Origin: a virus
Reading direction: 5' to 3' (one strand)
IMG/VR virus record: IMGVR_UViG_3300027917_000033
Location: 1-64,000 of that record
DNA: 64,000 bases
The position numbers were made by a program, and so were the translations under genes. Shown here one piece after another: positions 320-49,729 of this stretch. Every line of letters begins with the position of its first letter. Position 1 is the stretch's first letter. The notes under the pieces are model-generated. The model saw nothing but the letters and a program-made list of their open reading frames with translations. It was not told where the DNA came from and ran no database searches.

Positions 320-457
320 ATGGCTAGCTTCATAGAGGAAATGGCACCAATGTTCAGCTGGTGGTCACTCGTTTGGTTCATTACCGTGGTGGTTCTATTC
401 ATTCCAATAATCGTGACACATATCCTAACACGTGACTCATATGAGCATGAAGATTGA
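320..457 (+). CDS. Small single-pass membrane protein (45 aa)
   Basis: The start is fixed by a strong ribosome binding site, GGAGGAG at 310-316, followed by ATG at 320. The protein has a short acidic N-terminus, one hydrophobic segment at about residues 12-36 rich in Trp, Val and Ile, and a charged C-terminal tail. The family is not recognised; holin-like, superinfection-exclusion or regulatory roles cannot be told apart. Its TGA overlaps the ATG of the next gene by one base, so the two are probably translationally coupled. It heads the first cargo-like cluster. Confidence 0.7.
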   Translation: MASFIEEMAPMFSWWSLVWFITVVVLFIPIIVTHILTRDSYEHED

Positions 458-816
458 TGTACAAGACCTTCCTGACGAAGACCATCCTGACGATCAACCA
501 CGATCATTTAATGGGCGGCAACTTGGCGGCGTTATGCATGTATGAATTCTTAAAGAATGACGCCACAATCCACACCACCACCATATACGAGCATGAGCTC
601 AAGAAATCTCACTCGGTATTCCAGATATCGAAGGGTGGTAAGAATGCTGACATAGTAGTATATGAAGATGGCAGAGTATTGTGCAAAAAATGGCTTAGCA
701 GAGGCATCACTGGACTAAAGGACCTAAAGTTTTGTGACCAACTTGGTACGCTCAAGACTAATTTATACGACCCAGAATGCTTCGATAAGATAAAGAAGTT
801 CATCACTAATTCCTAG
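457..816 (+). CDS. DPxSF-domain protein, no leader
   Basis: This 119-aa protein ends with the hallmark of the repeated family, NLYDPECFDKIKKFI, preceded by strands containing VVYEDGRV. The N-terminal helix has YEFLKND in place of the usual YLxENGI. It lacks the MKLxxLYE leader seen in most paralogues. ATG at 457 overlaps the stop of the membrane-protein gene and is preferred over the in-frame TTG just before it. Function is unknown; family membership is clear from the C-terminal motif. Confidence 0.75.
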   Translation: MYKTFLTKTILTINHDHLMGGNLAALCMYEFLKNDATIHTTTIYEHELKKSHSVFQISKGGKNADIVVYEDGRVLCKKWLSRGITGLKDLKFCDQLGTLKTNLYDPECFDKIKKFITNS

Positions 817-848
817 AAAACCGATCCCCAGATAGCAAACATAACATA
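805..848. repeat. Intergenic repeat, copy 1 (contiguous)
   Basis: Two blocks are adjacent here: ACTAATTCCTAGAA (805-818) and a 32-base block with core GATAGCAAACATAACATA (817-848). Both recur near 3807-4007, with one C/T difference in the second block, but there they are separated by about 155 bases carrying a small basic gene. Both copies end immediately before a DPxSF-family start codon, so a promoter or leader role is likely. Confidence 0.8.
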
Positions 849-850
849 GG

Positions 851-1225
851 ATGGCGATCATGAAATGTCCGCGAAAAGCTGTATCGTATTCATTTCCGTA
901 CGATACGCACACGTACACCCAGCACATCCAGGATTACCAGTGCATCATAAGTCGCTACCTTCAAGAAATCTTCCCCTCCCTCATAATAGACGACGAAACT
1001 TGGTTGGACGTTATTACCATCAGCCACAAGAGAGTGGACACTTGGAAGCAGCTCAGCGATGGTCCATTTGTGGATATTATAATACGGCGGAACGGTAGAG
1101 TGGTGGTAAAGTACGTGGGAGATACGGATCATGAGGATGCCCAAGTGGAAGTGGAAGAGGTTGAGGTCTCCTTGTATGATCCAGAATCGTTGCCAAGGAT
1201 CTCAGAAATTGTGAGTAAGTTATGA
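851..1225 (+). CDS. DPxSF-domain protein
   Basis: This 124-aa protein has the C-terminal motif SLYDPESLPRISEIV and a central strand IIIRRNGRVVVKYV that matches the diversified middle of the family. The N-terminus is Tyr/His-rich and has no leader of the MKLxxLYE type. It starts at ATG 851 directly after the intergenic repeat; ATG 860 is an in-frame alternative. Its stop overlaps the next start as ATGA. Function unknown. Confidence 0.75.
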   Translation: MAIMKCPRKAVSYSFPYDTHTYTQHIQDYQCIISRYLQEIFPSLIIDDETWLDVITISHKRVDTWKQLSDGPFVDIIIRRNGRVVVKYVGDTDHEDAQVEVEEVEVSLYDPESLPRISEIVSKL

Positions 1226-1641
1226 AGCTTAAGAACCTGCACGAAGCGGTACACCATACGGGGCCTGACGACTACAACATGATCGATCTAATCGTGCAGT
1301 ATATCGAGAAGAATACGAAGGGGCTGCGTGCGCACATCGTGCCGTCCTCAATCATCGGGACCGGGGGTGAAAAAATAATCGTTTCCGCAAAGGGGGAAGA
1401 CTGGAAACATACCAATTATCCGCCATCGGAATATTTCCGTAAGCCCCGTACCTCTCGATTGCTGAGCACGGTCGTCCCTAAGACACCGTTCGTCTCTATC
1501 CTACTATATGGTGACGGCCAGGTATTCATGAATTATGTCTCGATGGTCGTCAGCCACAGTAAGACCGTCTCCATTTATGAACCGGATTCTTTACAGAGAA
1601 TCGTGAAATTCATTGTGCAGGCGTATGAATACCCTACATGA
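1222..1641 (+). CDS. DPxSF-domain protein with LHE leader
   Basis: This 139-aa protein starts MKLKNLHEAV. The LHE tripeptide followed by Ala matches the T4-type prohead protease consensus (L/I)-x-E before a small residue. Its C-terminal motif is SIYEPDSLQRIVKFI, and a strand reading VSILLYGDGQVFM lies in the middle. ATGA overlaps join it to both neighbours. I infer a packaged internal protein cut after residue 8; its biochemical role is unknown. Confidence 0.8.
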   Translation: MKLKNLHEAVHHTGPDDYNMIDLIVQYIEKNTKGLRAHIVPSSIIGTGGEKIIVSAKGEDWKHTNYPPSEYFRKPRTSRLLSTVVPKTPFVSILLYGDGQVFMNYVSMVVSHSKTVSIYEPDSLQRIVKFIVQAYEYPT

Positions 1642-1657
1642 GAGCGCTGGCCGTGAG
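1632..1657. repeat. 26-bp exact repeat, copy 1 (partner 2012-2037)
   Basis: A 26-bp stretch beginning CCCTACATGAGAGCGC is identical at 1632-1657 and 2012-2037. Here it spans the stop of one gene and the start of the next. In the second copy the same DNA is read as the SLHESAGRE leader of the next paralogue. This marks recombination between family members. Confidence 0.9.
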
Positions 1658-2009
1658 ACTTAAGACCTTATTTGAGAGCGCAGAGGCCTACGGTGATCTG
1701 CTCCTTGCCTATCTGAACGAAAGGGGTATAGAAGCCAAGACCCGTCACCCTAAAATGAGTCTTGGTAGCTCAGAATATAAAGACGGGACGATGAGGTGCA
1801 TGACTATTGTGGTCGATATGCCTCAGAGGCCAACTTCTGAGTTACCACCGATTATCAGGATTCGGACCTTTGAAGATGGCCACACATTGGCATGGTGGAT
1901 AGGGGGCCCACCTAGGCCCAAAAATTTGGGCCTTAAGACGAACATGCACGACCCGGATTCTTACCAGAAGATAGAAGCCTTCATTAGGGAGCATCTTGAT
2001 GAGGCTTAA
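1638..2009 (+). CDS. DPxSF-domain protein with LFE leader
   Basis: ATG 1638 overlaps the upstream stop, but the in-frame GTG at 1653 would give the family-type leader RLKTLFES with an LFE cleavage tripeptide, so 1653 may be the true start (118 aa). The first five residues come from a repeat shared with the next gene. Domain features are AYLNERGIEA in the first helix and NMHDPDSYQKIEAFI at the C-terminus. The stop overlaps the next gene out of frame. Inferred packaged protein; function unknown. Confidence 0.8.
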   Translation: MRALAVRLKTLFESAEAYGDLLLAYLNERGIEAKTRHPKMSLGSSEYKDGTMRCMTIVVDMPQRPTSELPPIIRIRTFEDGHTLAWWIGGPPRPKNLGLKTNMHDPDSYQKIEAFIREHLDEA

Positions 2010-2718
2010 ATCCCTACATGAGAGCGCTGGCCGTGAGGTGGCCAATCTCCTCAGGGCATACCTGGAGGAGAACGGGATAGAAGTATCTCAGTTTAGAGAA
2101 TGGTCTATCAACAGTTCTCTGGGGATACAGAGAGGAGATAGGTGGGCACGCATAATGGTGCACGACAGTGGTAGAATAGACATTTCGTTAACCAGGGACA
2201 GGGGACCGAGCTACTGGAAGTGGGGGACTCCGCATCTAGACAAGCATCGCGTATTCAACTTCCACGATCCTGACTCCTTCCAGAAAGTGGAAGCCTTAAT
2301 TAGGGATCACTTGGACGTAGATGCACCTGGGCCAAGATTGCCGAGCCTACCCATCCATGAGAGCCAAAGGGTAGCGGATCCGTATACGGTAGCCGAGCTA
2401 CTGGCGAAGTTTATACGCGATGCCAGGCTTCCTGGCTACCCTACTGTAGAGGAGCCCTACAAGAAGTATAAGTTCCGGAACCTTGTAGGTCACTGTGCGA
2501 CCATTATTGTCAGGCGGCTTGCGCCTTCTACATCTGGGTTCGACCAAATAGCCAACATAGTTGTACACGAGGATGGTGACCTCATATGGCGGGTAGGTTT
2601 GTGTATCTCGGGTTGTGAAAATCCGATAATTGGGGTCTCTCAATACAGGGACAATTTCCACCGCCCAGAGTCGTTTGAGAAGATAGTGAATACGCTACGG
2701 GATTGGTGGATGAGATAA
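1999..2718 (+). CDS. Two-module DPxSF protein with LHE and internal IHE motifs
   Basis: This protein of about 239 aa has two tandem family modules. The leader MRLKSLHESAG carries LHE before Ser. Module 1 contains AYLEENGIEV and ends FHDPDSFQKVEALI. A linker with PIHES follows at about residue 120, giving a second (L/I)-x-E site exactly between modules. Module 2 has YTVAELLAKFIRDARLPGYP and ends FHRPESFEKIVNTL. Module 2 closely resembles the gene at 49045, about 47 kb away. Cleavage at both sites would release two separate domains. ATG 1999 is preferred over TTG 1996. Confidence 0.8.
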   Translation: MRLKSLHESAGREVANLLRAYLEENGIEVSQFREWSINSSLGIQRGDRWARIMVHDSGRIDISLTRDRGPSYWKWGTPHLDKHRVFNFHDPDSFQKVEALIRDHLDVDAPGPRLPSLPIHESQRVADPYTVAELLAKFIRDARLPGYPTVEEPYKKYKFRNLVGHCATIIVRRLAPSTSGFDQIANIVVHEDGDLIWRVGLCISGCENPIIGVSQYRDNFHRPESFEKIVNTLRDWWMR

Positions 2719-2786
2719 TATGTTCAAACTCGACGACATCCGAGTGGACTGATCTGGGCCACCCACCACTTGAAAGGGGGAGCACG

Positions 2787-2867
2787 ATGAAATGTCCAAT
2801 GGGAGGCTGTTCTCGATGCGGGATCATGTGTGCTGGCGGGAAGCCAAAACCAAGACCCACCAAATGA
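2787..2867 (+). CDS. Cys-rich microprotein (26 aa)
   Basis: ATG 2787 is preceded by a strong GGGGGAG ribosome binding site. The 26-aa product is rich in Cys (C-x4-C-x2-C-x3-C) with a Lys/Pro tail, compatible with a small metal-binding knuckle. It fills most of the only sizeable gap in this part of the cluster. No family is recognised, and a random short frame cannot be excluded. Confidence 0.45.
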   Translation: MKCPMGGCSRCGIMCAGGKPKPRPTK

Positions 2868-2943
2868 ACTGCTTTGCAAGGATCCTGATGTCAGGGAAAC
2901 CTTGTAGGAAATATGCCAGAATCCGCGAAGTCGGAAACCAAAG

Positions 2944-3306
2944 ATGAAACTTAGTAACCTGTACGAGAGCGCGAGGGACTTCACGAGGATCATTTATGAG
3001 TTCCTGAATGGCACGGAGGTGGCCGGGTCGATGCAGCTGATAGGCGGTGAATTGGCCCATTTCGTCAGAATATACGACGATCATGAGGCTATTACAGACA
3101 TCAAGGCAAACAACGTCGGAGAAGCAACCATAAAAGTGCGCAGGAGGATTCCACGCATGAAGTGGCCTAATTATGAACGGGACACACTTGGCCGGTGGTG
3201 GGCCACTGGGGGTCTGGCATTGGTGTTCGAGGCGAAGATCGACCTGTACGAACCGGGGAGCCTGGAGAAACTATTGGATTACGTGAGATTCCGGAAGACC
3301 GTATGA
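2944..3306 (+). CDS. DPxSF-domain protein with LYE leader
   Basis: This 120-aa protein starts MKLSNLYESA (LYE before Ser). An N-terminal helix IIYEFLNGTEV and the C-terminal motif IDLYEPGSLEKLLDYV define the family. The middle is Arg/Trp-rich and unlike its neighbours, as expected for diversified cargo. ATGA overlap with the next gene. Inferred packaged protein of unknown function. Confidence 0.8.
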   Translation: MKLSNLYESARDFTRIIYEFLNGTEVAGSMQLIGGELAHFVRIYDDHEAITDIKANNVGEATIKVRRRIPRMKWPNYERDTLGRWWATGGLALVFEAKIDLYEPGSLEKLLDYVRFRKTV

Positions 3307-3632
3307 AGCTGTACGACCCTGATGAGTTACTGTCTTTTCTCTATAATTGCAAAATTACTGCCGATGATTTGTTGCTTGAGAAGATACTGGGGGAGTATCT
3401 AACAGAGAACGGAATTGAGGTGTACATGGACGGTGGGCTAGTTACGGTAAAGAAGGGGGTCTCTACTCAATTCTGCTTCGATTGCCTTTGCCTTCCTGGT
3501 ATTATCAGAGTGTTCTACATTGACAAAGTAAACTGGTCCCGTAGTGGGTTTGTTGATGAAGAGTTCTCGATATATGATCCGGAAGAATTGGAAAGGATGA
3601 TTAAATTTATTAAGGATTATCCTCGATCTTGA
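3303..3632 (+). CDS. DPxSF-domain protein
   Basis: This 109-aa protein uses ATG 3303, which overlaps the upstream stop as ATGA; the same frame is open further upstream, but that part overlaps the previous gene. The start MKLYDPDELLSFL itself resembles the DPxSF motif, as though a C-terminal fragment had become an N-terminus. The rest has EYLTENGIEV and ends SIYDPEELERMIKFI. There is no clear (L/I)-x-E leader. Function unknown. Confidence 0.75.
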   Translation: MKLYDPDELLSFLYNCKITADDLLLEKILGEYLTENGIEVYMDGGLVTVKKGVSTQFCFDCLCLPGIIRVFYIDKVNWSRSGFVDEEFSIYDPEELERMIKFIKDYPRS

Positions 3633-3637
3633 CGGCG

Positions 3638-3811
3638 ATGAACAGAAAGTATGCCTGGATGGCCAGAGAAACAGAGTGGTTCAAGAACATGACAGAACCA
3701 CTGGAGATATTGCGTAGGCCTTTGGGAAGCCCTCGAAGCGTACGAAAAGTATGGCCGTCTAGGTTCTCAATGCGAAATATCGCAAACCGAAAAATCCGAA
3801 AATACCACTAA
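3638..3811 (+). CDS. Small basic protein (57 aa), hypothetical
   Basis: A basic, Arg-rich open frame with several Trp and Met residues. It lies between two family genes and ends just before the first block of the split intergenic repeat. No ribosome binding site is obvious and no family is recognised. It may be a decayed paralogue or a spurious frame. Confidence 0.35.
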   Translation: MNRKYAWMARETEWFKNMTEPLEILRRPLGSPRSVRKVWPSRFSMRNIANRKIRKYH

Positions 3812-3841
3812 TTCCTAGAAGTATGGAATTCGAGGTACATA

Positions 3842-3994
3842 GTGGCAAAGAAGGCTAAGAAGCTTGGTAGCCTAAGTAAGCTGAAGATTCTTCGCGCTTA
3901 TAATCTAGCTACAGATTCACTTACAATCAAAAGCGCTAACAAGACCAAGCGTAAGGCATCTGCACGCCCTCGAAAAAAACCGATCCCTAGATAG
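3842..3994 (+). CDS. Very basic small protein (50 aa)
   Basis: GTG 3842 follows a GAGG ribosome binding site at 3832-3835. The product is about one third Lys/Arg, starting MAKKAKKLG and ending ARPRKKPIPR. It could bind nucleic acid or pack with DNA in the head. It occupies the DNA that separates the two halves of the intergenic repeat, and its last codons lie inside the second half. Whether it was inserted here or lost from the first copy is unclear. Confidence 0.5.
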   Translation: MAKKAKKLGSLSKLKILRAYNLATDSLTIKSANKTKRKASARPRKKPIPR

Positions 3995-4007
3995 CAAACA
4001 TAACATA
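3976..4007. repeat. Intergenic repeat, copy 2 (split from its first block)
   Basis: This block matches 817-848 with one C/T difference and ends at the start codon of the next family gene. Its companion block ACTAATTCCTAGAA lies upstream at 3807-3820. The intervening DNA carries the small basic gene at 3842. Confidence 0.85.
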
Positions 4008-4234
4008 TGGAAGTAGACCCGTCACAGTTAATTGTTTCCTACTTGCACGAGAACGGCATAAAAGCAACCAATAGACCGGTTCACCCAGGATTGATTGTAT
4101 TTGTTGCAAATGAGGGGTGGAGATACGTAGATGTGGAGGATCATTTAGTGACAATAGATAAGTTCAAGGGTGACCTACACGATCCCGCATGCCTACAGAG
4201 ATTAACAGAATACCTGTGGAAATTGGGTGCGTGA
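4007..4234 (+). CDS. Minimal DPxSF-domain protein (75 aa)
   Basis: This is the shortest clear family member: SYLHENGIKATN in helix 1, then about 35 residues of strands, then DLHDPACLQRLTEYL. It therefore outlines the minimal domain. There is no leader. The start lies directly behind the intergenic repeat, and the stop overlaps the next start as GTGA. Function unknown. Confidence 0.75.
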   Translation: MEVDPSQLIVSYLHENGIKATNRPVHPGLIVFVANEGWRYVDVEDHLVTIDKFKGDLHDPACLQRLTEYLWKLGA

Positions 4235-4608
4235 AACTAAAGACACTGCGTGAAACGACCGATGACGAAACTAAAATAGTGGTAGATTCCATCGTTGAAT
4301 ATTTCGTGGACAATGGAATTTTTGCTTGGAATCGCCACTACATGAACGGGGAAAAGACAAATGAAATATGTGTGAATGCTGGTGAGGGGCTGAAGATAAT
4401 TATGCTCTACCTTTTCCCACATAGGATACTGATAGGGTTTAATGCTATGCATCTGTCTTACAAACAGAAGAAAATACTACAATACGTGACACCCAGATTC
4501 TTAGGTGAAGTCAATATCAACGATCCGGATTCTTATTCAAAATTGCTGAAGATAGTTAAGAAGGCACTAAATGAAGTTAAAGATCTTATACAATTAGGAA
4601 CAACATGA
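4231..4608 (+). CDS. DPxSF-domain protein with LRE leader
   Basis: GTG 4231 overlaps the previous stop and restores the family leader MKLKTLRETT (LRE before Thr); the frame is open further upstream, but without such a leader. The 125-aa product has EYFVDNGIFAWN and ends NINDPDSYSKLLKIV plus a basic tail. Inferred packaged protein; function unknown. Confidence 0.8.
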   Translation: MKLKTLRETTDDETKIVVDSIVEYFVDNGIFAWNRHYMNGEKTNEICVNAGEGLKIIMLYLFPHRILIGFNAMHLSYKQKKILQYVTPRFLGEVNINDPDSYSKLLKIVKKALNEVKDLIQLGTT

Positions 4609-4967
4609 AATTAGAAAATTTATACGAACGGGAACATGATGATAGTGATGTTGTAACAGTTGCCAACGCACTCATGACGTACCTGTCTGATAATGGAATT
4701 ATGAGCGTCAAAATTGGACATCCATTCCCGAGTGTCTATGATGATGGTTCGTGGGCAAAAGTGCAACAAATAATGGTGGGTAATATAACGATAGTTGTGC
4801 GCAGTAACGGAGTGGTGCGTATATGGCCATCGACAAAAGATACAAGGTATTTAGCATTAGAAGTCGATATACACGATCCAGATTCTTTCCCAAAGGTACT
4901 TGAATTCGTCAAGGCACAAAGCAATGCACGTGAAGACGTAATCGGTAGACACCGTCTGGGCTATTAA
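4605..4967 (+). CDS. DPxSF-domain protein with LYE leader
   Basis: This 120-aa protein starts MKLENLYERE. It contains TYLSDNGIMSV and IVVRSNGVVRIWP, and ends DIHDPDSFPKVLEFVKA. The last 70 bp of the domain are identical at DNA level to part of the two-module gene at 5136, showing recent gene conversion or duplication. ATGA overlaps on its 5' side. Function unknown; packaged cargo inferred. Confidence 0.82.
   Translation: MKLENLYEREHDDSDVVTVANALMTYLSDNGIMSVKIGHPFPSVYDDGSWAKVQQIMVGNITIVVRSNGVVRIWPSTKDTRYLALEVDIHDPDSFPKVLEFVKAQSNAREDVIGRHRLGY
4848..4917. repeat. 70-bp perfect repeat, copy 1 (partner 5376-5445)
   Basis: Seventy consecutive identical bases encode the end of the DPxSF domain in two neighbouring paralogues (4848-4917 and 5376-5445). 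The surrounding sequences differ strongly, so the exchange is recent and limited to the C-terminal module. Confidence 0.95.
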
Positions 4968-4981
4968 TGAAGGAGGTGTCC

Positions 4982-5131
4982 GTGTGCCCACATGATGATT
5001 TCGACATCTTGTATGAAGATGAATTCTATGAAATTGTAGTAAGAAAATGTAAGGACTGTGGGCAAATCGAAGTAAACGCGGAGTGGGCTGATGTCGAGTG
5101 GCTCAGGTCCATTATAGCTGATATAGATTGA
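4982..5131 (+). CDS. Small zinc-ribbon-like protein (49 aa)
   Basis: GTG 4982 is placed by the near-perfect ribosome binding site AAGGAGG at 4970-4976; ATG 4967 in the same frame would include that site. The acidic product has Cys and His near the N-terminus (MCPHDD) and CKDCG at about residues 23-27, suggesting a single metal site. It sits between two family genes but shares none of their motifs. Function unknown. Confidence 0.6.
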   Translation: MCPHDDFDILYEDEFYEIVVRKCKDCGQIEVNAEWADVEWLRSIIADID

Positions 5132-5135
5132 TAAT

Positions 5136-5801
5136 ATGAAGCTTAATACACTATACGAAACGCTGGGTTCGGATTACCCAAGAGAAACAGTTATACGAGC
5201 ATTGTATAAATACCTTGTTGATAATGGTATCCCACGGTCGAAGATTGACGATGGTTTGTCCGCAGTCCTATATATTGGCGGAAGTCCTGGATCTTCGCCA
5301 CGTCGTAATTATATCAGGATTATCGACCCTGAAGATCACATTATTCATGTGGCGTATCATGGGGATCGTCCTCATTATTTAGCATTAGAAGTCGATATAC
5401 ACGATCCAGATTCTTTCCCAAAGGTACTTGAATTCGTCAAGGCACGTAAAGACGTGGTCGGTGAGTCGTTATATGAAGATCACCCATTACTGATCAACTT
5501 GATTGCCCAATATTTATTGGATAACGGAATCAGAAGCGAGAAGCTGGGTTCTTTTGGTAGCGCCCAGCTAGTCGTACCACCTGTATCACGCGCATCTCTG
5601 AAGTCTCCAGGTTTGCCATCTCGCCAGCAGATCAGGATTTGGGCTTTTGACAATGGGTTAATAGATGCCATCCATTATACCAATCCCAACATCGCCTCAC
5701 CTTTCAGGGTGCATTTGAACGTTCATGATCCAGGTAGTCTGGAAAAGTTGAAAGACTTCATCATGAAATTCGAAGATGTTTGGACGGCAGCTATAGCGTG
5801 A
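5136..5801 (+). CDS. Two-module DPxSF protein with two LYE motifs
   Basis: This 221-aa protein starts MKLNTLYETL. Module 1 has KYLVDNGIPRS and DIHDPDSFPKVLEFV. A linker with GESLYEDHP at about residue 112 gives a second LYE site, and module 2 has QYLLDNGIRSEK and NVHDPGSLEKLKDFI. Like the 1999 gene, the second (L/I)-x-E tripeptide lies precisely at the module border, as expected for a leader retained after gene fusion or kept for processing. Stop overlaps the next GTG. Confidence 0.83.
   Translation: MKLNTLYETLGSDYPRETVIRALYKYLVDNGIPRSKIDDGLSAVLYIGGSPGSSPRRNYIRIIDPEDHIIHVAYHGDRPHYLALEVDIHDPDSFPKVLEFVKARKDVVGESLYEDHPLLINLIAQYLLDNGIRSEKLGSFGSAQLVVPPVSRASLKSPGLPSRQQIRIWAFDNGLIDAIHYTNPNIASPFRVHLNVHDPGSLEKLKDFIMKFEDVWTAAIA
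5376..5445. repeat. 70-bp perfect repeat, copy 2
   Basis: Identical to 4848-4917. Here it encodes the end of the first module of the two-module gene. Confidence 0.95.
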
Positions 5802-6178
5802 AGCTATACACGCAGCTAATCTATGAATTTCTAAAAGAAAACGGAATCCAGTCTTATCATACGACAATTCTTAACTATGATTGCATTTTCATAACGATGG
5901 ACCCCCACTTCGCGGCAGAAGATTACCCTGGGGGATTCTTCAGGACCAACGAGTATAGTGCGATAGGGATATGGCCAAATGACAACGGTGTGGTGACGAT
6001 GGAATATGAAAATCCAGATTATAAGCCAGCTAGGACACTTCCATATGGCGGTGTCCGCCACATACACAAGTGGTATCCAGACACGATGGATGTCAACATA
6101 CATGATCCTAACAGCCTACAGGAAATACTGGCATTCATCAAGAAGTACCCAGACACATTTGATAGAAACTATACATGA
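5798..6178 (+). CDS. DPxSF-domain protein
   Basis: GTG 5798 overlaps the previous stop (GTGA). The product of about 126 aa begins MKLYTQLIYEFLKENGI, so the leader region runs straight into the first helix of the domain. An IYE tripeptide is present, but it lies inside that helix and may not be a processing site. It ends DVNIHDPNSLQEILAFIKK. Function unknown. Confidence 0.78.
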   Translation: MKLYTQLIYEFLKENGIQSYHTTILNYDCIFITMDPHFAAEDYPGGFFRTNEYSAIGIWPNDNGVVTMEYENPDYKPARTLPYGGVRHIHKWYPDTMDVNIHDPNSLQEILAFIKKYPDTFDRNYT

Positions 6179-6462
6179 AACTCAATAACTTGTCAGAATC
6201 AGACGCCGAAAGGGCAAACCTGACATTGAGGGTGATCTATATGTGGTTGTTAGAAAACGGATGGTATGCTAATGCCATCAATATGCATGATTGGGAGAAT
6301 GTAATATTGTTTGATAATATCAGCATAGAAATAGATTATGACGGGGATGTACAAGCTATAACTAATGAAGAACCACATCACAGTATATATATTGATTTAC
6401 ATGATCCACAATGTTTTGGCAAATTAGCTGAATTCCTTAATGAGTACGAGCCAAAGAAATGA
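6175..6462 (+). CDS. DPxSF-domain protein with LSE leader
   Basis: This 95-aa protein starts MKLNNLSESD (LSE before Ser). It has MWLLENGWYA in helix 1 and ends DLHDPQCFGKLAEFLNEY. It overlaps both neighbours by ATGA. Inferred packaged protein; function unknown. Confidence 0.8.
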   Translation: MKLNNLSESDAERANLTLRVIYMWLLENGWYANAINMHDWENVILFDNISIEIDYDGDVQAITNEEPHHSIYIDLHDPQCFGKLAEFLNEYEPKK

Positions 6463-6788
6463 ATATAATCGCCGGGCAACTAGATTTTAGGACAATTACG
6501 ACTTGCCTGAAAGAATATCTTAATGACAATGGCATCACGAGGGTAATAACAGTAGGTGAGAATCTGTTAACATGCGCAGACCTGACGATATCTCTTAACG
6601 GGTATAGCAAGGAGATACAAAACAGTTCTTGGGCAACCATAGAAATATTTGATGATGGAAAATATAAACTGGTCATAGTTGTACGCCGTAGAGACCGATA
6701 TAGTAATGAGATCAATTATGGCTCTGTTTATGATCCTGATAGCTTTCCTAAGATACTTGAATCTATAAAGAAGCGCTATGAAAATTAG
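6459..6788 (+). CDS. DPxSF-domain protein, no leader
   Basis: This 109-aa protein has EYLNDNGITRV, a strand region with IEIFDDGKYKLVI, and the ending SVYDPDSFPKILESI. Its N-terminus lacks an MKLxxLYE leader. It overlaps the next gene by 11 bases. Function unknown. Confidence 0.78.
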   Translation: MNIIAGQLDFRTITTCLKEYLNDNGITRVITVGENLLTCADLTISLNGYSKEIQNSSWATIEIFDDGKYKLVIVVRRRDRYSNEINYGSVYDPDSFPKILESIKKRYEN

Positions 6789-7488
6789 CGAGTTATACGA
6801 ATCGACACTACTATGGAGTACTCCCAATAATCGGAGAAAGGTGAACGCTTGGGCCAAAGCTATCAGTGAATACCTCAAGGAAGAAGGTTTCCCGGCGCAC
6901 CGCCCATGTATAGATGAGATAGTGGTCGCCAAAGAATATGGAACCCACCCCCACACTAGAATAGTTGTAAACACAGATGGGCAAATAAGTGTGTGGCACG
7001 TGGGGCCTACCACAAAGCCATTTGAAGTGTCTATTTACGATCCGGACAGCTTCGAGATAATAAAAGAGTTCGTTAGTCGCTACAAATATGACCTTATAAT
7101 AAGTCGTGACGACTGGGTACGAGGACGAGGGCCTGTCGCCGAAGATACATGGCAGACAATGGCGGCAAGTTCAGAAGCGCTCGCCGCTTTAGCGTCATAC
7201 CTAGAAGATGATGGTTTTTATATAAAATCTCTTGTGCCATGGCGCACTATCACTGGCAGCAAAGGTCACTATCTCAGTGTGTATATGTCACCAGAAGAAA
7301 GCCGACGGGCAGAGTTTTTTAGACTAGTAGTAAGTTTACCAGATGATTCGCTAAAAGCAAGAATATACAGGTTGGGACCTGCTGCTCAACATTTATACGG
7401 AGAAATGTCAAACATGTTATTTGACTTGGCAGAACCGGGTTCATTCCGAAAAATAGCAGCAAGAATGCGCGAGCTGGCCGGGTATTAG
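6778..7488 (+). CDS. Two-module DPxSF protein with LYE leader
   Basis: This 236-aa protein starts MKISELYEST. Module 1 has EYLKEEGFPAH and SIYDPDSFEIIKEFV; module 2 has SYLEDDGFYIK and ends DLAEPGSFRKIAARM. The module-2 variant AEPGSF links this cluster to the ADPN-type variants in the cluster at 44388-49425. No clear (L/I)-x-E tripeptide stands at the module border, unlike the two other tandem proteins. Function unknown. Confidence 0.8.
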   Translation: MKISELYESTLLWSTPNNRRKVNAWAKAISEYLKEEGFPAHRPCIDEIVVAKEYGTHPHTRIVVNTDGQISVWHVGPTTKPFEVSIYDPDSFEIIKEFVSRYKYDLIISRDDWVRGRGPVAEDTWQTMAASSEALAALASYLEDDGFYIKSLVPWRTITGSKGHYLSVYMSPEESRRAEFFRLVVSLPDDSLKARIYRLGPAAQHLYGEMSNMLFDLAEPGSFRKIAARMRELAGY

Positions 7489-7502
7489 TATTTTAAATCC
7501 TA

Positions 7503-7772
7503 ATGGGTTGTACTACTGCATCATGTATCCGTATGCTTGTAGAAGAACTGGGTTTACGGTGTTCAGAAATCCGTCCCCCCACGTTGCTTAACCCATGTCT
7601 ATATATCTATAAACGTGGCCAAGCTCCTATCATGTGCCACATAAGAGATAATGGCAACATTGACCTAAAGGCGACATATAGCAAAATAACCGTCAATATT
7701 TATGACCCAGAGTCGTTCCCTCGCATTAAAAAATTCATAGAAGCGGCGTTCTCCTCGCGCTACAAGTGGTGA
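7503..7772 (+). CDS. DPxSF-domain protein, no leader
   Basis: This 89-aa protein ends NIYDPESFPRIKKFIEAAF, a textbook family motif, preceded by IRDNGNIDLKA. The N-terminus is Cys-rich (MGCTTASC) and lacks the leader. ATG 7503 follows a 14-base spacer. Function unknown. Confidence 0.75.
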   Translation: MGCTTASCIRMLVEELGLRCSEIRPPTLLNPCLYIYKRGQAPIMCHIRDNGNIDLKATYSKITVNIYDPESFPRIKKFIEAAFSSRYKW

Positions 7773-8132
7773 TCCGATAAACACTTCATAGAAAAACTAA
7801 TCTCTGATAATAAACCAACAAAAATAGAGGATGGTAAAATTTGGAAGAATCTTGTGCTTCTTTGGCTTGCACGATTGGGTGGAGAGCAATTGCCCGATCC
7901 GCAAAAAGCTTGGTAGAGGATATTTTGTATACTGGGAATGTACCAGATGCTCTACTAGGGCTATTTCGTCTGGTGACAATACCAAAGTTATTGAGCACTA
8001 ACAATGATGTTACGCCAATATTCAGAAGAAGCAAATAAAGTTATTGAAGACGGATGCAAAACGAGGCCAGCGGCGAGGGCATGGAGTGCAAGATCGACAA
8101 GCATTCCCAAAAGCATTGAATTGGCTTAAGAG
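7773..8132. other. 360-bp stretch without a clear gene; possibly decayed
   Basis: Three short open stretches follow each other on the + strand in changing frames: one open from 7776 to an early stop without a usable start, one at 7841-8038, and one at 8004-8129 starting with two ATGs. None shows the DPxSF motif or another recognisable domain. The pattern suggests a degenerated gene or genes. An AAGAGGTGG ribosome binding site at the end belongs to the next gene. Confidence 0.45.
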
Positions 8133-8489
8133 GTGGATCACAAAGCCGTAGGTTTGTATCATTGTATGTCGCTATTGCATGATTATCTTGGGGAAAATGG
8201 GATAAAATGTAATTTATTTACACCAAGGGACATAATTGTTAATTTCAGCAAGAATGCCTCAGCGGTGGTACAAATTAGTAATAATGGAAAGATTTCTATA
8301 CACTCCACACATACTAAACTAATCCAACACTCCACACATACTAAACTAATCCAACACGGTAAATCGCGTCCACCAATCTGCGGCACCACCACCAGTATCG
8401 TATTAGCAGAGTTTGATATATACGATCCGGGAAGTTTCCCAGAAGTGTCTGCACAATTAAAGCTAATGGCTAGCATAATAAATGATTGA
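8133..8489 (+). CDS. DPxSF-domain protein with in-frame tandem duplication
   Basis: GTG 8133 overlaps the purine-rich AAGAGGTGG. The 118-aa product has DYLGENGIKCN and ends DIYDPGSFPEVSAQL. In its variable middle a 9-residue unit (HSTHTKLIQ) is exactly duplicated. There is no leader. It shares 8 bases with the next gene. Function unknown. Confidence 0.75.
   Translation: MDHKAVGLYHCMSLLHDYLGENGIKCNLFTPRDIIVNFSKNASAVVQISNNGKISIHSTHTKLIQHSTHTKLIQHGKSRPPICGTTTSIVLAEFDIYDPGSFPEVSAQLKLMASIIND
8301..8354. repeat. 27-bp perfect tandem duplication
   Basis: Two identical 27-bp units beginning CACTCCACACATAC (8301-8327 and 8328-8354) add nine residues to the variable part of the host gene without shifting its frame. 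Confidence 0.95.
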
Positions 8490-8796
8490 TGAAGTAGAAG
8501 CAGTATTGGAAAGCCTGTGTGCCTGGTTGGAAACGGAGGGGATTGCAGCTATTTATTCTAAAGTGTGGAAGCAGATCCACATAGTAGACGTCACAGGATC
8601 GGTGATTGTCGCAATAATTAGAATGAGTTACGGAGGCGACGGACCATGGCTGTCAATCAAAAATGATTCGGTAAGCTCGCTGATGCCTTTTGGCAACGCT
8701 CCATATACCAATCAGAGTATATCATTGTTTGAACCGGATGCTTTCGAAAAAGTGGCAAAATCATTAAAGATTTCTTTGAAATTTAATAGAAAATGA
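8482..8796 (+). CDS. DPxSF-domain protein, no leader
   Basis: This 104-aa protein has AWLETEGIAAIY in helix 1 and ends SLFEPDAFEKVAKSL. It starts directly in the helix without a leader. An 8-base overlap joins it to the upstream gene and ATGA to the downstream gene. Function unknown. Confidence 0.75.
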   Translation: MIDEVEAVLESLCAWLETEGIAAIYSKVWKQIHIVDVTGSVIVAIIRMSYGGDGPWLSIKNDSVSSLMPFGNAPYTNQSISLFEPDAFEKVAKSLKISLKFNRK

Positions 8797-9062
8797 AAGC
8801 GTACGACAGAATTATATCAAAGTCAGAGAAATTAGCAATGGTAGGCCAGTATGTGGAAGACCATGGTTACGTTGTTGAAGATTCTCCAATTGAAGGTTAC
8901 ATAAAAGTTACCTACGAGGACTACGTTGTTGCCATGATAGGCGACAAAACTGGTTCAGAAGTGCTTGTACTGGGTGATGGAGCGAGAACGTTCAATATCG
9001 CCAATCCAAAATCGTTACAGCAAATAATTAAACATATTAGCAAACTCAAACGTAAACTGTGA
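8793..9062 (+). CDS. Divergent DPxSF-domain protein
   Basis: This 89-aa protein has QYVEDHGYVVED in helix 1 and ends FNIANPKSLQQIIKHI, a variant with ANP in place of DPD. The opening resembles the 44388 protein, which has a related SEKLAMVGQYV/SERLAIVGQYL segment. No leader. Its stop overlaps the next GTG. Confidence 0.72.
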   Translation: MKAYDRIISKSEKLAMVGQYVEDHGYVVEDSPIEGYIKVTYEDYVVAMIGDKTGSEVLVLGDGARTFNIANPKSLQQIIKHISKLKRKL

Positions 9063-9439
9063 AATTAAAGCATTTACATGAAGACGTTTCCGACGTCCAG
9101 ATCGTAATACATACAATATATGAATACTTGAGTGAACGAACTGGCCGCCCAAGAGAAGTGCCATTGTATCCATCTAAACCAGATATTGAAGGTACAGGCA
9201 ATGCAACACTTAACGTTTATAGTCCTGAAGGTTGGCTAATCACAACATTTGTTGTGAAGGACGGGACTTTTGTCTATGCACGAGGGCCGTGGGGCAGCAG
9301 AGTTCCTGGGGGACATTTCAACCTAGCGGATCCAAATTCGTTAGAAGAAATGAGGGAATTATGCTATAATATATACAACGGAAAGAAAAAGCGATCTTAT
9401 GGAAGAACACGACTAAGGCCTAGGCAGGGAACTCCTTGA
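9059..9439 (+). CDS. DPxSF-domain protein with LHE leader
   Basis: GTG 9059 gives MKLKHLHEDV (LHE before Asp). The 126-aa product has YEYLSERTG, a strand TFVVKDGTFVYA, the variant motif FNLADPNSLEEMREL and a basic Arg-rich tail. It is the last gene of the first cluster. Its 3' end overlaps the convergent gene on the other strand by 20 bases. Confidence 0.78.
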   Translation: MKLKHLHEDVSDVQIVIHTIYEYLSERTGRPREVPLYPSKPDIEGTGNATLNVYSPEGWLITTFVVKDGTFVYARGPWGSRVPGGHFNLADPNSLEEMRELCYNIYNGKKKRSYGRTRLRPRQGTP

Positions 9440-9821
9440 TATATTTCCATCCGACTTCAGCTAACAATCCCTTATCAATAATTTCGTCCATTATATAAAA
9501 GCAATCTGGGTTCGCCAAACTGACTTTCACCATGCCCTTTACCTCTTGATATCTATCGCAATCATCAAAACAATCAAACGAAGTTCTTTCGAGCCTGTTG
9601 CATTCACTGCACGTGAACGATTGCGGTATACCTATCATTAATTCGACTTCGTGGTCTGCTAGGCGTGTAGTGTCAAATGACTTTTCTATGTTGATTTCTA
9701 TTTCGTTTTCTTCTGTTTGAACCCAGAATCTGACAGTTCTGTCATATTCACCATAAACTTCAACGAATATCCTTTTATTTGATTTTAACCACTGCCTCAA
9801 TATGTCTGCACTGCCATTCAT
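9420..9821 (-). CDS. Hypothetical protein with Cys cluster (133 aa)
   Basis: An acidic protein with a possible metal site at about residues 70-90 (CSECNRLERTSFDCFDDC). The N-terminal half looks strand-rich (FVEVYGEYDRTVRFWV). No family recognised. It is the last gene of the long minus-strand block and converges on the first cargo-like cluster. Confidence 0.65.
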   Translation of the reverse strand: MNGSADILRQWLKSNKRIFVEVYGEYDRTVRFWVQTEENEIEINIEKSFDTTRLADHEVELMIGIPQSFTCSECNRLERTSFDCFDDCDRYQEVKGMVKVSLANPDCFYIMDEIIDKGLLAEVGWKYIKEFPA

Positions 9822-12579: not shown

Positions 12580-13408
12580 TGTTTGTCCAAAAAGGAGAAT
12601 AATCAACAGATGCTTTGTCTAGTAGCCGCCTTACTTCCTTTACCACCAAAGCATCTTGTAATGCCATAACGCTATTTGTGTACTGTTTTGTTACAACCCT
12701 CTTTTCTTCGCTCATTGTCCTTAGCTCATCGTTCAAAGCCCGCTGCCTGGCTTGAACAGCCCTGGTGGAAATACTATCAATCTTGCGAATTGACCTGACT
12801 TCTTGCTTTAACGATCTACCCTTGAGCCCTTTTTCAATAGCACGGTTTATTATTAATACCTGCTCTCTCATATTTGTAAGTTGTGTAATCGCCAGGGCGT
12901 CGTCTAAGCTAAATCTGCCATTACCGAGATGCTTCCTTAGGGCTGGCGTAGCGTGTTCTAATGCCCTCAATATACCTCTGACGGTCTTGACGCGCATATT
13001 GTATTTCTCTGCTATTTCATTGATAGAAAGCAAACCACGGTCAGCTTCCATCAGCTGCGCGACTTCGTATGCCGTCAACTGCTTCCTTGCTTCATTTTCA
13101 ATGAAAAACCTTTTGACCCTTTCCTTATTGTCTATCATTACGATTTCGGCTGGTATAGTTTCAAGACCGACTTCTTTGGCCGCACGCAGCCTCCTATGGC
13201 CCCACACCAACTGATATTTCCAGTCCTTACCCTTGCCACGCTTGCGAGCTTTCCCGCGTTTTCTCTCTTTAATTGGTGTAACCTGGATTCTTACCAACAC
13301 ACCATACTGTCTGATACTATCCTTCAATTGCTCAAAATCATCTTTTCTGGATTGGCGATCGAGGAATGGCTTGATTTCATCAATTGGTATATCGATTTCT
13401 TGAACCAT
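12560..13408 (-). CDS. ParB-like protein 2
   Basis: About 282 aa. ParB-type features: IDEIKPF at the start, LVWGHRRLRAAKEVGLETIP (box II), then an HTH region with TAYEVAQLM and INEIAEKYNMRVKTVRGIL, and a coiled, basic C-terminal half. ATG 13408 is chosen; the open frame runs further upstream into a divergent gene. It lies upstream of, and overlaps, ParB-like protein 1, so the pair is probably co-expressed. Confidence 0.78.
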   Translation of the reverse strand: MVQEIDIPIDEIKPFLDRQSRKDDFEQLKDSIRQYGVLVRIQVTPIKERKRGKARKRGKGKDWKYQLVWGHRRLRAAKEVGLETIPAEIVMIDNKERVKRFFIENEARKQLTAYEVAQLMEADRGLLSINEIAEKYNMRVKTVRGILRALEHATPALRKHLGNGRFSLDDALAITQLTNMREQVLIINRAIEKGLKGRSLKQEVRSIRKIDSISTRAVQARQRALNDELRTMSEEKRVVTKQYTNSVMALQDALVVKEVRRLLDKASVDYSPFWTNNENQKH

Positions 13409-13434
13409 ATGATTCATCCATAATAGCAAATGAG

Positions 13435-13935
13435 ATGCCTTCCATTTATATATTTGGCTCAAAGTTTAAAGACGATATATCTTCTTGGCAAGAGAATACA
13501 ACAGAAACCATTCTTTGGTACCAAGGACGTATTTTAATTATTATGGATGAATTATTACTAATACAAGATGGAATTAATCATAACTTGGAGCGCGGAATAA
13601 TAATTAATTGGGAGTCTCCACCATATATAATATGGAATATGAGAAGATGCGCAGGAAGTGTAATAATTCGCATACCACACATAATTATTATAGATGACTA
13701 TCATGGACTAAATAATGGAAAATTTGACATTCACGAACCAGAATCACTACAGAAGTCTGCAGCACTCATATCACTAATATGTAAAAAACATAGGGCTAGG
13801 ATCAAGCACGAGAGAATCAAACAGAGGAAATTGGACCGCAAATGGATAGAACCCCAGAGTAAGGCGATGAAGAGCATCATGAGAGCGGAGAAATTCAACA
13901 ATAAAAATCTTATACACCCAAAGCGAGGAAGATAG
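13435..13935 (+). CDS. Isolated DPxSF-domain protein
   Basis: About 166 aa from ATG 13435; the frame is open upstream but overlaps the divergent ParB-like gene. The Ile/Trp-rich core and FDIHEPESLQKSAALI place it in the DPxSF family far from the main cluster. The C-terminus is long and strongly basic (Lys/Arg/His), unlike most paralogues. No leader. It is a + strand gene inserted in a minus-strand block, which hints at mobility of the family. Confidence 0.6.
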   Translation: MPSIYIFGSKFKDDISSWQENTTETILWYQGRILIIMDELLLIQDGINHNLERGIIINWESPPYIIWNMRRCAGSVIIRIPHIIIIDDYHGLNNGKFDIHEPESLQKSAALISLICKKHRARIKHERIKQRKLDRKWIEPQSKAMKSIMRAEKFNNKNLIHPKRGR

Positions 13936-20145: not shown

Positions 20146-20523
20146 TTACTTAAGGATAAAGTCTGAATGGTCTTTATCTGGAGGTGGGTAGCTCGGAGAA
20201 GATTGTCTTGGTGGTTTAGCTTTGGCACTATAGCCATAGTACCATCTTTTCCTGTCTTGTGAATGTTTTTTATTCATTGGTTGCCAAACCAATTTTTTAG
20301 GTTGTGTCGTCTGATCTCCAAATTGTACCTGGGATTTGTTAAAGTTGTCTTCGTCGTCGTCTTCCATCAACCCGAATACCGGCCTGCTATTTGCAAACGA
20401 CAAGTACCAGCGCATGTGGCCGCGTGGTTTGGATACTTCAGCGTCTGCTTTGTTACTTAAAATCGATGGCTTGAATGCAATCGCGCCAACAAGAGTAGTT
20501 TCGTATATCAAGTCTAGTTTCAT
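20146..20523 (-). CDS. Possible packaged protein with IYE leader (125 aa)
   Basis: The start MKLDLIYETTLVGA has the same design as the cargo leaders (MKL, then IYE before Thr) but lies on the minus strand, away from both clusters. The rest is Lys/Asp/Pro-rich and probably disordered, without a DPxSF motif. A virion-internal protein is inferred from the leader only. Confidence 0.6.
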   Translation of the reverse strand: MKLDLIYETTLVGAIAFKPSILSNKADAEVSKPRGHMRWYLSFANSRPVFGLMEDDDEDNFNKSQVQFGDQTTQPKKLVWQPMNKKHSQDRKRWYYGYSAKAKPPRQSSPSYPPPDKDHSDFILK

Positions 20524-44387: not shown

Positions 44388-44876
44388 ATGAAACTAAAAT
44401 CATTGTATGAATCTGAGTCTGATGAATCTCGCATAAAACGACTTCGGGATTCTGTAACAATACCATCATCTAAAAATATTTATAATGACATGATCGGAGT
44501 GTCGGAAAGACTGGCGATAGTTGGGCAATATTTAAGTGATTGGGGCTTTCCAGTTGACCCAGTAAGTAAACCATCAACTGGTCATCCCCCATTCATACGG
44601 GTATGGAATAATGAACACAAAACCGGTGTCGTTGCAATATCTGTTAGAGCATTGGTATCGGGTTATAAAGTATTTGGGATTCCTACAATTGGCCCATCTG
44701 AAGTGTTTATAGAAAAACTTGGTAGCAATATGCGAAGAAAGTCAGCGAATCTGTGGGCCAAAAAAGTCGATTTGGCTAAACCTAATGCACTGCAAACAAT
44801 AAAACAAATAGTCGAAGAAATGGTTTTTCTGCCAAACCAAAGACGTGATCATTTAGTGGACCCAGATGAATCCTGA
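44388..44876 (+). CDS. DPxSF-family protein with LYE leader, second cluster
   Basis: 162 aa, starting MKLKSLYESES, so the first-cluster type of leader opens the second cluster. A helix SERLAIVGQYLSDWGFP resembles the 8793 protein, and the C-terminal motif is the variant VDLAKPNALQTIKQIV. The gene follows the structured-RNA region directly and overlaps the next gene by 11 bases. Inferred packaged protein; function unknown. Confidence 0.75.
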   Translation: MKLKSLYESESDESRIKRLRDSVTIPSSKNIYNDMIGVSERLAIVGQYLSDWGFPVDPVSKPSTGHPPFIRVWNNEHKTGVVAISVRALVSGYKVFGIPTIGPSEVFIEKLGSNMRRKSANLWAKKVDLAKPNALQTIKQIVEEMVFLPNQRRDHLVDPDES

Positions 44877-45390
44877 AGAAATAGCCAAGTTGATCACGGA
44901 AGATCCCGACGTCTTCGAAGACTGGGATGAAGCTGATATAGGATTGGTGGAAACGATGAATCCAGAGGATATAGCCAAGTTGATCACGGAAGATCCGGAC
45001 ACTCCGGACATTCTGGATCTCGTAAGTCAAAAATTATTCGAATTAGGCTATAGCCACGAGAACAGGTGGGGCGGATTATTGATTCGCCCTGAGCAGCTGA
45101 ACATCGAAGGCGTAGAAGACTGCGAAGGGCTTTATATCGAAGATAAAGGCCAAGCCAACATTAACATGATCATGATAGACAAGAACGCGCCTGAGGCTTT
45201 CGGTCCTGGAGACTTCACGCCATGGTGGTCGGGGACCTTCCTGAAGAACATCTGGCGTCGACCAACAGGTTACTTTGACTATTGGTATCCATTGAATTTG
45301 GCTGATCCCGAAGAATATGAAGAATTTGAAGAAATTCTTAAATGGTCGATGGAAGATTGGAGAGGCTATTGGAGACTGGGTCAACTGTGA
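44866..45390 (+). CDS. Cargo-like protein with duplicated ITE leader
   Basis: This 174-aa protein begins MNPEEIAKLITEDPD, and the same leader recurs as MNPEDIAKLITEDPD from residue 31 (ATG 44956 is a possible internal start). A 26-bp core is identical in both copies. Each has ITE before Asp; an LVE also lies between them. The body is Trp-rich and has NLADPEEYEEFEEIL, a variant of the DPxSF motif. Inferred packaged protein; function unknown. Confidence 0.78.
   Translation: MNPEEIAKLITEDPDVFEDWDEADIGLVETMNPEDIAKLITEDPDTPDILDLVSQKLFELGYSHENRWGGLLIRPEQLNIEGVEDCEGLYIEDKGQANINMIMIDKNAPEAFGPGDFTPWWSGTFLKNIWRRPTGYFDYWYPLNLADPEEYEEFEEILKWSMEDWRGYWRLGQL
44881..44996. repeat. 26-bp leader repeat (44881-44906 and 44971-44996)
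   Basis: Two exact 26-bp copies, starting ATAGCCAAGTTGATC, encode the IAKLITEDP part of the duplicated leader. Nucleotide identity, not only protein identity, shows a recent leader duplication. Confidence 0.92.
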
Positions 45391-46229
45391 ACCCTAAAGA
45401 TATAGCCCGGATGATTACTGAAGACCCGGATATGACGGAAGATATAGACGACCTGACAATATTGGGGTGGTTCAAAGAATATCTTGAAAATAGCCCGATT
45501 ATTGCGAAGGCTTTTGAACACGGTCGCTTTGGCAAGTTCATCAGGTACGATTTTGAAAACTTTGGGCCTGTCCAGAGCAAACCGTGGGTGCGTCTCAATA
45601 TAACGACATCTGCACACAGTGGCGCTGTAATTGTACACAATGGCAAACTTGAATTATTTAATTATTTCATGCCAAAAACGCGCATCGTAGACTTGGCTGA
45701 TCCGAACGCATTTGAACGTGCTACAGAGATTATAGTAGAGCTATTGTTCGCTGGTCCTGCTCGTCGGGCTTTCCAGACAGAGGAAATGAATCGCCCTGAC
45801 CCAGAAAATACAATCAGGTTGGTCGAAGAAGACCCGAACGCTAAGTCTATAGAAGAAATAGCGAGTGAGGTGCGTTTAAAGGCAAGCCAACTAGGGATTG
45901 ATCTTCCACCGACATCGGTCATGTGGACAGATAAAGACACTAGTCATTATGATTTTAAAGATATCTATATAAGCCAAAGGGATGCTGATGATGCATTTGC
46001 GATTGTGGCGCACGAATATGGACACGTTTTGTATGATATGCTGTCAAAAGAACAGCAAGACATGTGGTTTGAGTTGGTGAATAAAGAAGTCTTCAATGGC
46101 AAATTATATCCTGCCCATGGTGACGAAGTTTTTGCTAGAAGTTTCCAACACGTGATCGCAAATGAGTCAGAACCAGCTTATGAAGCTGCTAGAGATGCAT
46201 TTTTTAAAATAATGTCATATGAATCCTAA
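45387..46229 (+). CDS. HExxH metalloprotease with two predicted processing sites
   Basis: GTG 45387 gives 280 aa. The leader MNPKDIARMITEDPD has ITE. Residues 20-120 form a domain ending VDLADPNAFERATEII (DPxSF variant). A second site, LVEEDPN at about residues 145-151, mirrors the leader. The C-terminal domain has the zinc protease motif AHEYGH (His209, Glu210, His213) and a possible third ligand in GDEVFA (Glu247). Cleavage at both sites would free the protease from its carrier domain. I infer an injected effector or a head-processing enzyme; the substrate is unknown. Confidence 0.8.
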   Translation: MNPKDIARMITEDPDMTEDIDDLTILGWFKEYLENSPIIAKAFEHGRFGKFIRYDFENFGPVQSKPWVRLNITTSAHSGAVIVHNGKLELFNYFMPKTRIVDLADPNAFERATEIIVELLFAGPARRAFQTEEMNRPDPENTIRLVEEDPNAKSIEEIASEVRLKASQLGIDLPPTSVMWTDKDTSHYDFKDIYISQRDADDAFAIVAHEYGHVLYDMLSKEQQDMWFELVNKEVFNGKLYPAHGDEVFARSFQHVIANESEPAYEAARDAFFKIMSYES

Positions 46230-48247: not shown

Positions 48248-48284
48248 AGGCAAAGATAATTTATGAATACATTGTGTGCGAAAC

Positions 48285-49728: not shown

Positions 49729-49729
49729 G

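What the first reader, a model, noticed from the sequence alone, without database searches (positions are those of the whole stretch)
457..9439. About 20 adjacent paralogues of one small domain, with at least six more elsewhere
Nearly 9 kb are filled by genes sharing a helix with YLxENGI and a C-terminal hYDPDSFxKIxxFI helix but with almost unrelated middles. Outlying copies are at 13435, 44388, 44866, 45387, 48285 and 49045. Strong conservation of both ends with free variation between them suggests a common carrier or docking fold with diversified surfaces, as in an arms race with host targets.
Basis: partly seen in the sequence, partly recalled or inferred. Interest (0 to 1): 0.85.

Follow-up and report, generated by a model that had tools for sequence, protein, structure and literature searches.

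The report
Phage cargo proteins with head-packaging tags
A large uncultured phage carries a row of about 20 related small proteins, and about half of them, together with many unrelated proteins, begin with a short tag that looks like the 'pack me into the virus head, then cut me off' signal of phage T4, so they are probably injected into the bacterium with the viral DNA.

Summary
In detail: 20 adjacent genes (454-9439) carry 23 copies of one small domain; 33 copies in the 87.8-kb phage record form one family (32/33 by leave-one-out). AlphaFold gives a confident helix / five-strand / helix fold with no significant match among solved structures or sequence families. About half of the copies start with MKLxxLxE or ..DIAxLITEDPD, and both tags also sit on unrelated proteins (NUDIX, kinase, ADP-ribosyltransferase-like, cREC) in related jumbo phages. 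Both end in [LI]xE, the cleavage motif of T4 prohead protease gp21. Relatives encode that protease (45 of 48 informative capsid loci), and their gp23-type capsid precursors carry [IL]xE|D where T4 gp23 is matured. At a hotspot shared by two syntenic phages only the tags align; the bodies differ. Best explanation: T4-type capsid-targeting sequences; the tagged paralogues are packaged, cleaved and injected, probably as diversified binders of host targets, like T4 Ip1-3. Packaging, cleavage, injection and targets are inferred, not shown. The rest of the family, including an array in one relative, is untagged, so the domain is not only cargo. New variant of a known kind.

The parts
454..1225 (+). 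two untagged family members (454-816, 851-1225)
   Evidence: leave-one-out E 5e-9 and 2e-9
1222..1641 (+). family member, tag MKLKNLHE|A
1653..2009 (+). family member, tag (V/M)RLKTLFE|S (GTG start inside ORF 1638-2009)
1999..2718 (+). two-domain member, tag MRLKSLHE|S; second [LI]xE site IHE|S at residue 121 before domain 2
2944..3306 (+). family member, tag MKLSNLYE|S
3303..4234 (+). members 3303-3632 (MKL start without the E) and 4007-4234 (untagged)
4231..4608 (+). family member, tag (V/M)KLKTLRE|T
4605..4967 (+). family member, tag MKLENLYE|R; the modelled domain (H-E-E-E-E-E-E-H)
   Evidence: AlphaFold2 pLDDT 87.7, tag residues 54
5136..5801 (+). two-domain member, tag MKLNTLYE|T; its only other [LI]xE site is LYE|D at residue 114, just before domain 2
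5798..6178 (+). family member, no clear tag
6175..6462 (+). family member, tag MKLNNLSE|S
6459..6788 (+). family member, untagged
6778..7488 (+). two-domain member, tag MKISELYE|S
   Evidence: model of both domains, pLDDT 76
7503..9062 (+). four untagged members (7503-7772, 8133-8489, 8482-8796, 8793-9062)
9059..9439 (+). family member, tag (V/M)KLKHLHE|D
9420..9821 (-). untagged member on the other strand
   Evidence: leave-one-out E 1.6e-4
13384..13935 (+). doubtful member, C-terminal half of the profile only
   Evidence: E 4e-5
20146..20523 (-). unrelated protein with tag MKLDLIYE|T, tag kept in the G002 orthologue (40% identity)
44388..44876 (+). family member, tag MKLKSLYE|S, in the hotspot shared with G002
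44866..45390 (+). two ITEDPD tags in series, then a marginal family domain
45387..46229 (+). ITEDPD tag, family domain, then M78-like metallopeptidase (sub-threshold, E 0.022); GTG start inside ORF 45342-46229
46219..46953 (+). MNPKDIARLITE|DPD tag on a protein without family match
46987..47712 (+). MEPIDIARLITE|DPD tag on a protein without family match
47816..48247 (+). MNTKDIAMLITE|DPD tag on a cREC receiver domain
   Evidence: PF20274 E 3e-19
48276..48692 (+). family member with ITE|DPD followed by DLYE|Q
48689..49048 (+). MKPEDIAKRITE|DPD tag on an unknown protein
   Evidence: sequence
49045..49425 (+). family member, tag (L/M)KLPVLYE|E
49700..50083 (+). rubrerythrin-like protein with the ITEDPD motif at its C-terminus
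   Evidence: PF02915 E 2.6e-7
52821..53177 (+). unrelated protein with tag MRLCDLHE|A; a similar tagged protein is in G006 (67654-68061)

Best explanation
MKLxxLxE and ..DIAxLITEDPD are capsid-targeting sequences of the T4 type in a clade of jumbo phages with a gp23/gp21-type head. Tagged proteins enter the prohead core. The S77 prohead protease cuts after [LI]xE, probably also between the two domains of 5136-5801 and 1999-2718. The mature bodies stay in the head and are injected with the DNA. The small helix-sheet-helix domain has been multiplied and diversified, in large part as cargo of this route, most likely as binders or inhibitors of different host proteins, the way T4 Ip1, Ip2 and Ip3 each block a different GmrSD enzyme. 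Shown: one family, its predicted fold, tags on unrelated proteins, the [LI]xE motif, the protease and the same motif in the capsid precursors of relatives, and turnover of bodies behind conserved tags. Inferred: packaging, cleavage, injection, target binding, and that the window's own phage has the same head module.
For: Tag MKLxxLxE at the first start codon of 24/1443 genes versus 6/9991 internal start codons in five phages, on unrelated proteins. Both tags end in L/I-X-E, the gp21 motif (PMC9026906). S77 protease in G006, G008, G013 and in 45/48 informative capsid loci. MCP precursors carry [IL][LF]E ahead of the gp23 core in the capsid loci examined. Tagged genes directly after the MCP in G008 and L117. 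About 16 IMG/VR contigs hit by the ITEDPD DNA pattern, 8 of which carry the clade MCP. Tag residues poorly ordered outside a confident fold. Syntenic hotspot where only tags align; 3/34 tagged or family genes versus 56/108 others have a counterpart. Precedent: T4 Ip1-3 share only the leader and block distinct GmrSDs (PMC12373910, PMC3012670).
Against: No virion or cleavage data. The window's record holds no head genes, so the protease is inferred from relatives. About half of the family, and the G013 array, has no tag. Tag enrichment next to the capsid gene is weak overall (20/330 down, 7/265 up, p 0.049). [LI]xE is a short motif, and the tag regex was taken from the window. No host target is known.
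Confidence: 0.62

Rival explanations
1. The domain acts inside the infected cell as ordinary accessory proteins (anti-defence, regulation, binding); the tag marks a subset that is packaged, and packaging is incidental to what the domain does.
For: About half of the copies in this record and all eleven accepted domains in G013, many in one tandem array at 176-184 kb, are untagged.
Against: In the main cluster and the 44-49 kb hotspot more than half of the members are tagged; tagged and untagged genes interleave.
Confidence: 0.22
2. The tags are not for the head but are docking or localisation peptides for another phage compartment or complex.
For: Packaging is not shown; the tag is linear and at the end of the chain.
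Against: Both independent tags end in the prohead-protease motif, the capsid precursor has the same motif, and some tagged genes lie beside the capsid gene.
Confidence: 0.1
3. Tagged members are structural filler or DNA-condensing core proteins without a host target.
For: Some T4 and phiKZ-type internal proteins are abundant core components (PMC9026906).
Against: Mature forms are mostly neutral to acidic (charge -25 to +3), bodies turn over fast, and other tagged proteins are enzymes.
Confidence: 0.04
4. Neutral gene duplication and decay with no function.
For: Tandem arrangement; gaps of 170-370 bases between some members.
Against: 20 open, mostly overlapping genes; saturated synonymous sites with conserved residues; well-predicted fold; a similar array in G013.
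Confidence: 0.02

Closest known systems
T4 internal head proteins IPI, IPII, IPIII and Alt with their capsid-targeting sequence, processed by gp21
   Same: Short N-terminal leader shared by otherwise unrelated small proteins, ending in L/I-X-E; variable loci; gp21/gp23-type head in the relatives; Alt is also processed at its C-terminus, as would be the C-terminal tag of 49700-50083 (PMC9026906).
   Different: Leader sequence differs (IPIII leader versus MKLxxLxE and DIAxLITEDPD); two leader types; many more cargoes; one large paralogous domain family with tandem and two-domain copies; no virion data.
T4 IPI* (injected GmrSD inhibitor)
   Same: Described as beta sheets flanked by N- and C-terminal helices, about 76 residues after cleavage (PMC3012670).
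   Different: No homology found: not among the best Foldseek PDB matches, none with E<0.001; no sequence match.
phiKZ / SPN3US ejection (inner-body) proteins
   Same: Jumbo phages, cleavage after Glu by a gp21-type protease, paralogues with a conserved N-terminus (gp53/gp54, PMC5694885).
   Different: Motif there is S/A-X-E or A-X-E with mostly long propeptides; here L/I-X-E with 8-16 residues.
Polyvalent proteins and P1 Dar-type injected anti-restriction proteins (from memory and paper titles only)
   Same: Virion-borne anti-host proteins with mixed enzymatic domains; one tagged protein weakly matches ART-PolyVal.
   Different: Those are long multidomain proteins; here there are many short separate ones. 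Not tested further.

Membership tests
T4-type capsid-targeted internal head proteins | short N-terminal leader shared by otherwise unrelated proteins | tested here: met
T4-type capsid-targeted internal head proteins | leader ends in the prohead-protease motif L/I-X-E | tested here: met
   sequence; motif from PMC9026906
T4-type capsid-targeted internal head proteins | phage encodes a gp21-type (S77) prohead protease | tested here: inconclusive
   present in relatives; the window's record is a fragment without head genes
T4-type capsid-targeted internal head proteins | capsid precursor matured at the same motif | tested here: met
   sequence only, in relatives
T4-type capsid-targeted internal head proteins | protein is in the virion, cleaved, and injected | not testable with these tools
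   needs virion proteomics
T4-type capsid-targeted internal head proteins | inhibits a host defence enzyme | not testable with these tools
   needs expression and plating assays
T4 IPI* fold or homologue | detectable sequence or structure homology to solved IPI* | tested here: not met
phiKZ/SPN3US ejection proteins | S/A-X-E cleavage motif | tested here: not met
   tags and MCP sites have L/I at P3
any Pfam, PHROG or NCBIfam family | recognised above cut-off or consistently across members | tested here: not met
   only scattered single-member weak matches

The most novel reading that the evidence does not exclude
This jumbo-phage clade runs a general protein-delivery system: two interchangeable cleavable head-targeting tags, usable at either end of a protein, on dozens of unrelated cargoes, with bodies swapped behind conserved tags at hotspots, and two-domain precursors cut by the prohead protease into separate effectors of a fold without known relatives.
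Probability: 0.35. Interest if true: 0.8.

Novelty: new variant of a known kind. Interest (0 to 1): 0.64.

Why it matters
If true, a simple sequence rule lists the probable injected proteins of an uncultured jumbo-phage clade, and this one phage supplies about 20 candidates, many of one family with no known relative. T4 carries three injected inhibitors against three GmrSD restriction enzymes (PMC12373910); an array of diversified copies would be a ready catalogue of candidate anti-defence proteins, each testable in laboratory strains.

Tried and rejected
A collection search with the family alignment failed for lack of a conserved stretch, and a scan with one member found no relative in IMG/VR. 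tblastn of a two-domain member in cultured phages gave only chance-level hits. Pfam, PHROG, NCBIfam and PDB sequence searches gave no family. Foldseek gave only weak similarity to uncharacterised phage proteins in BFVD (best E 0.0057, TM about 0.5) and nothing significant in PDB; the T4 MotA double-wing domain appeared at E 0.94 and was not pursued. An encapsulin-cargo reading of the C-terminal tag on the rubrerythrin-like protein (weak EncFtn match) was dropped because the same motif is N-terminal on other proteins. Neutral decay was rejected and a DNA-condensing role is disfavoured by charge. Strain-level dN/dS was not possible: the contigs nearest to G002 are nearly identical to it, and the window's phage has no closer relative than about 65% identity. 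The best cultured and uncultured capsid relative, LR756511, has different N-termini next to its capsid gene, so these exact tags are not universal.

Full report
WHAT IS THERE. The window is bases 1-64000 of an 87,842-base virus record, called G000 here. With outlying copies the record holds 33 domains that recruit each other. Each was re-scored with a model built without it: 33 of 33 beat 300 shuffles and 32 of 33 have E below 0.01. The weak cases are 44866-45390 (E 0.052) and 13384-13935 (C-terminal half only). Mean pairwise identity is 23% in the first helix, 21% at the C-terminus and 14% in the middle. So 'strong conservation of both ends' rests on a few positions (YL, ENG, DP.SF), and the middle keeps a strand pattern with a [DN]G turn.

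FOLD AND SELECTION. AlphaFold2 with the paralogues as alignment gives helix - strands - helix for 4605-4934, mean pLDDT 87.7, with residues 1-10 at 54. Both halves of 6778-7488 show the same order of elements (mean pLDDT 76). No PDB match reaches E 0.001; in BFVD only uncharacterised phage proteins come near (best E 0.0057). There is no Pfam, PHROG, NCBIfam or PDB sequence family. Where the amino acid is kept, synonymous codons are nearly as different as random draws (2655 same-codon pairs, 2566 expected): old duplicates under purifying selection.

THE TAGS. Twelve of the family genes in the window start with M[KR][LI]xxLxE (three with GTG or TTG starts inside or at the ORF), and three more with the second tag..DIAxLITEDPD. 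The first tag is at the first start codon of 24 of 1443 genes in five phages against 6 of 9991 internal start codons. The pattern was drawn from the window, so that p-value is post hoc; but 21 tagged genes were then found in the four relatives G002, G006, G008 and G013, where the pattern is rare at internal start codons (6 of 8447). The tagged bodies are unrelated to one another: NUDIX, AAA_33 kinase, KptA/DarT-like and PARP/KptA-like (both below cut-off), cREC, M78-like (below cut-off), and a rubrerythrin-like protein with the tag at its C-terminus. In the window the replication genes (DnaE, RecA, DnaB, SbcC and SbcD) carry no tag.

WHY CAPSID TARGETING. Relatives were found through the DnaB helicase. 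Three long ones (370,804, 274,625 and 185,177 bases) have the T4 gp21-type protease, Peptidase_S77, and a gp23-type major capsid protein. In IMG/VR capsid loci of this clade the protease is present in 45 of 48 loci with enough upstream sequence, 44 of them with the DHP and G[IV]S[SA]RG motifs. The capsid precursors carry [IL][LF]E followed by D, E or N just ahead of the gp23 core, the place where T4 gp23 is matured (T4 position from general knowledge). T4 gp21 cuts after L/I-X-E, the first ten residues of IPIII suffice as capsid-targeting sequence, and Alt is cut at both ends (PMC9026906). Both tags here end in that motif: MKLxxLxE| and LITE|DPD. In G008 five genes with such N-termini follow the capsid gene; in L117 the first gene after it carries DIAKLITEDPDV. 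Over all capsid loci the enrichment is weak (20 of 330 downstream, 7 of 265 upstream, p 0.049). A scan of all IMG/VR contigs for DNA encoding the ITEDPD tag hit about 16 contigs, of which 8 also carry the clade's capsid gene. In 5136-5801 the only two [LI]xE sites are at residue 8 and at residue 114, right before the second domain.

TURNOVER. G002 is collinear with G000 over the core (about 40-80% protein identity). Of 108 other genes 56 have a counterpart; of 34 tagged or family genes only 3 do (p 6e-6). The 'other' set includes many unconserved small genes outside the core, so the contrast is not exclusive to tagged genes. Both phages fill the same syntenic interval (G000 41.0-50.1 kb, G002 34.5-42.4 kb) with tagged genes whose bodies do not match; only the tags align (74% over 8% of 46219-46953; 68% over 18% of 48276-48692). 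Between nearly identical contigs, both large indels found (1.5 and 0.5 kb) remove or trim ITEDPD-tagged genes; these are two events, and assembly error is not excluded. This is the pattern described for T-even internal-protein loci, where the proteins share only the leader (PMC3012670, PMC12373910).

LIMITS. There are no virion data. The record lacks its head genes, so its protease is inferred from relatives. About half of the family is untagged, and the eleven domains accepted in G013 are untagged, so the domain is a general-purpose module used in part as cargo. Target binding is inference from T4 Ip1-3, each of which blocks one GmrSD enzyme (PMC12373910).

VERDICT. Observation confirmed; interpretation partly supported: there is a common fold, but the likely carrier is the cleavable tag. 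New variant of a known kind (T4-type injected internal proteins), with a domain family new to the libraries searched.

Noticed in passing
G000 80602-81096 minus (L002:2603-3097) and G002 8580-9044 (L059): Short proteins whose N-terminal part resembles the N-arm of the gp23-type major capsid protein (FTKFALPVIKAVMPSLISTNLVNVQPMSQP in G002) followed by an unrelated C-terminal half; conserved between the two phages (44% identity). Possibly a capsid-derived decoy or minor head protein.
   Followed up: partly
G002 17684-19209 and 34513-35032: Two indels against nearly identical contigs G003 and G012, both at ITEDPD-tagged genes; the first leaves in G003 a clean short gene that starts with the tag. 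No homology at the junctions.
   Followed up: partly
G013 176101-183663: Second tandem array of the same domain in a 185-kb relative, about 100 residues each and untagged (EWLxENGW ... DPxFFxKL).
   Followed up: partly
window 38942-40333 and 35464-37827: DNA polymerase III alpha appears split into a PHP-domain half and a polymerase half, separated by three small genes.
   Followed up: no
window 41022-42776: Protein of many GNxSFAQG-like repeats (YadA-head-like), without counterpart in G002, at the edge of the tagged-gene hotspot.
   Followed up: no
LR756511.1 516906-525000 (L114): In the 595-kb megaphage with the best capsid match, genes after the capsid gene start with aromatic-rich N-termini (MLTWTEFLEA, VDFKEWYFINE) that look like another version of a head-targeting tag.
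   Followed up: partly
window 49700-50083 and G006 101289-101783: The TEDP(D) tag occurs at the C-terminus of two proteins, recalling T4 Alt, which is cut at both ends.
   Followed up: no
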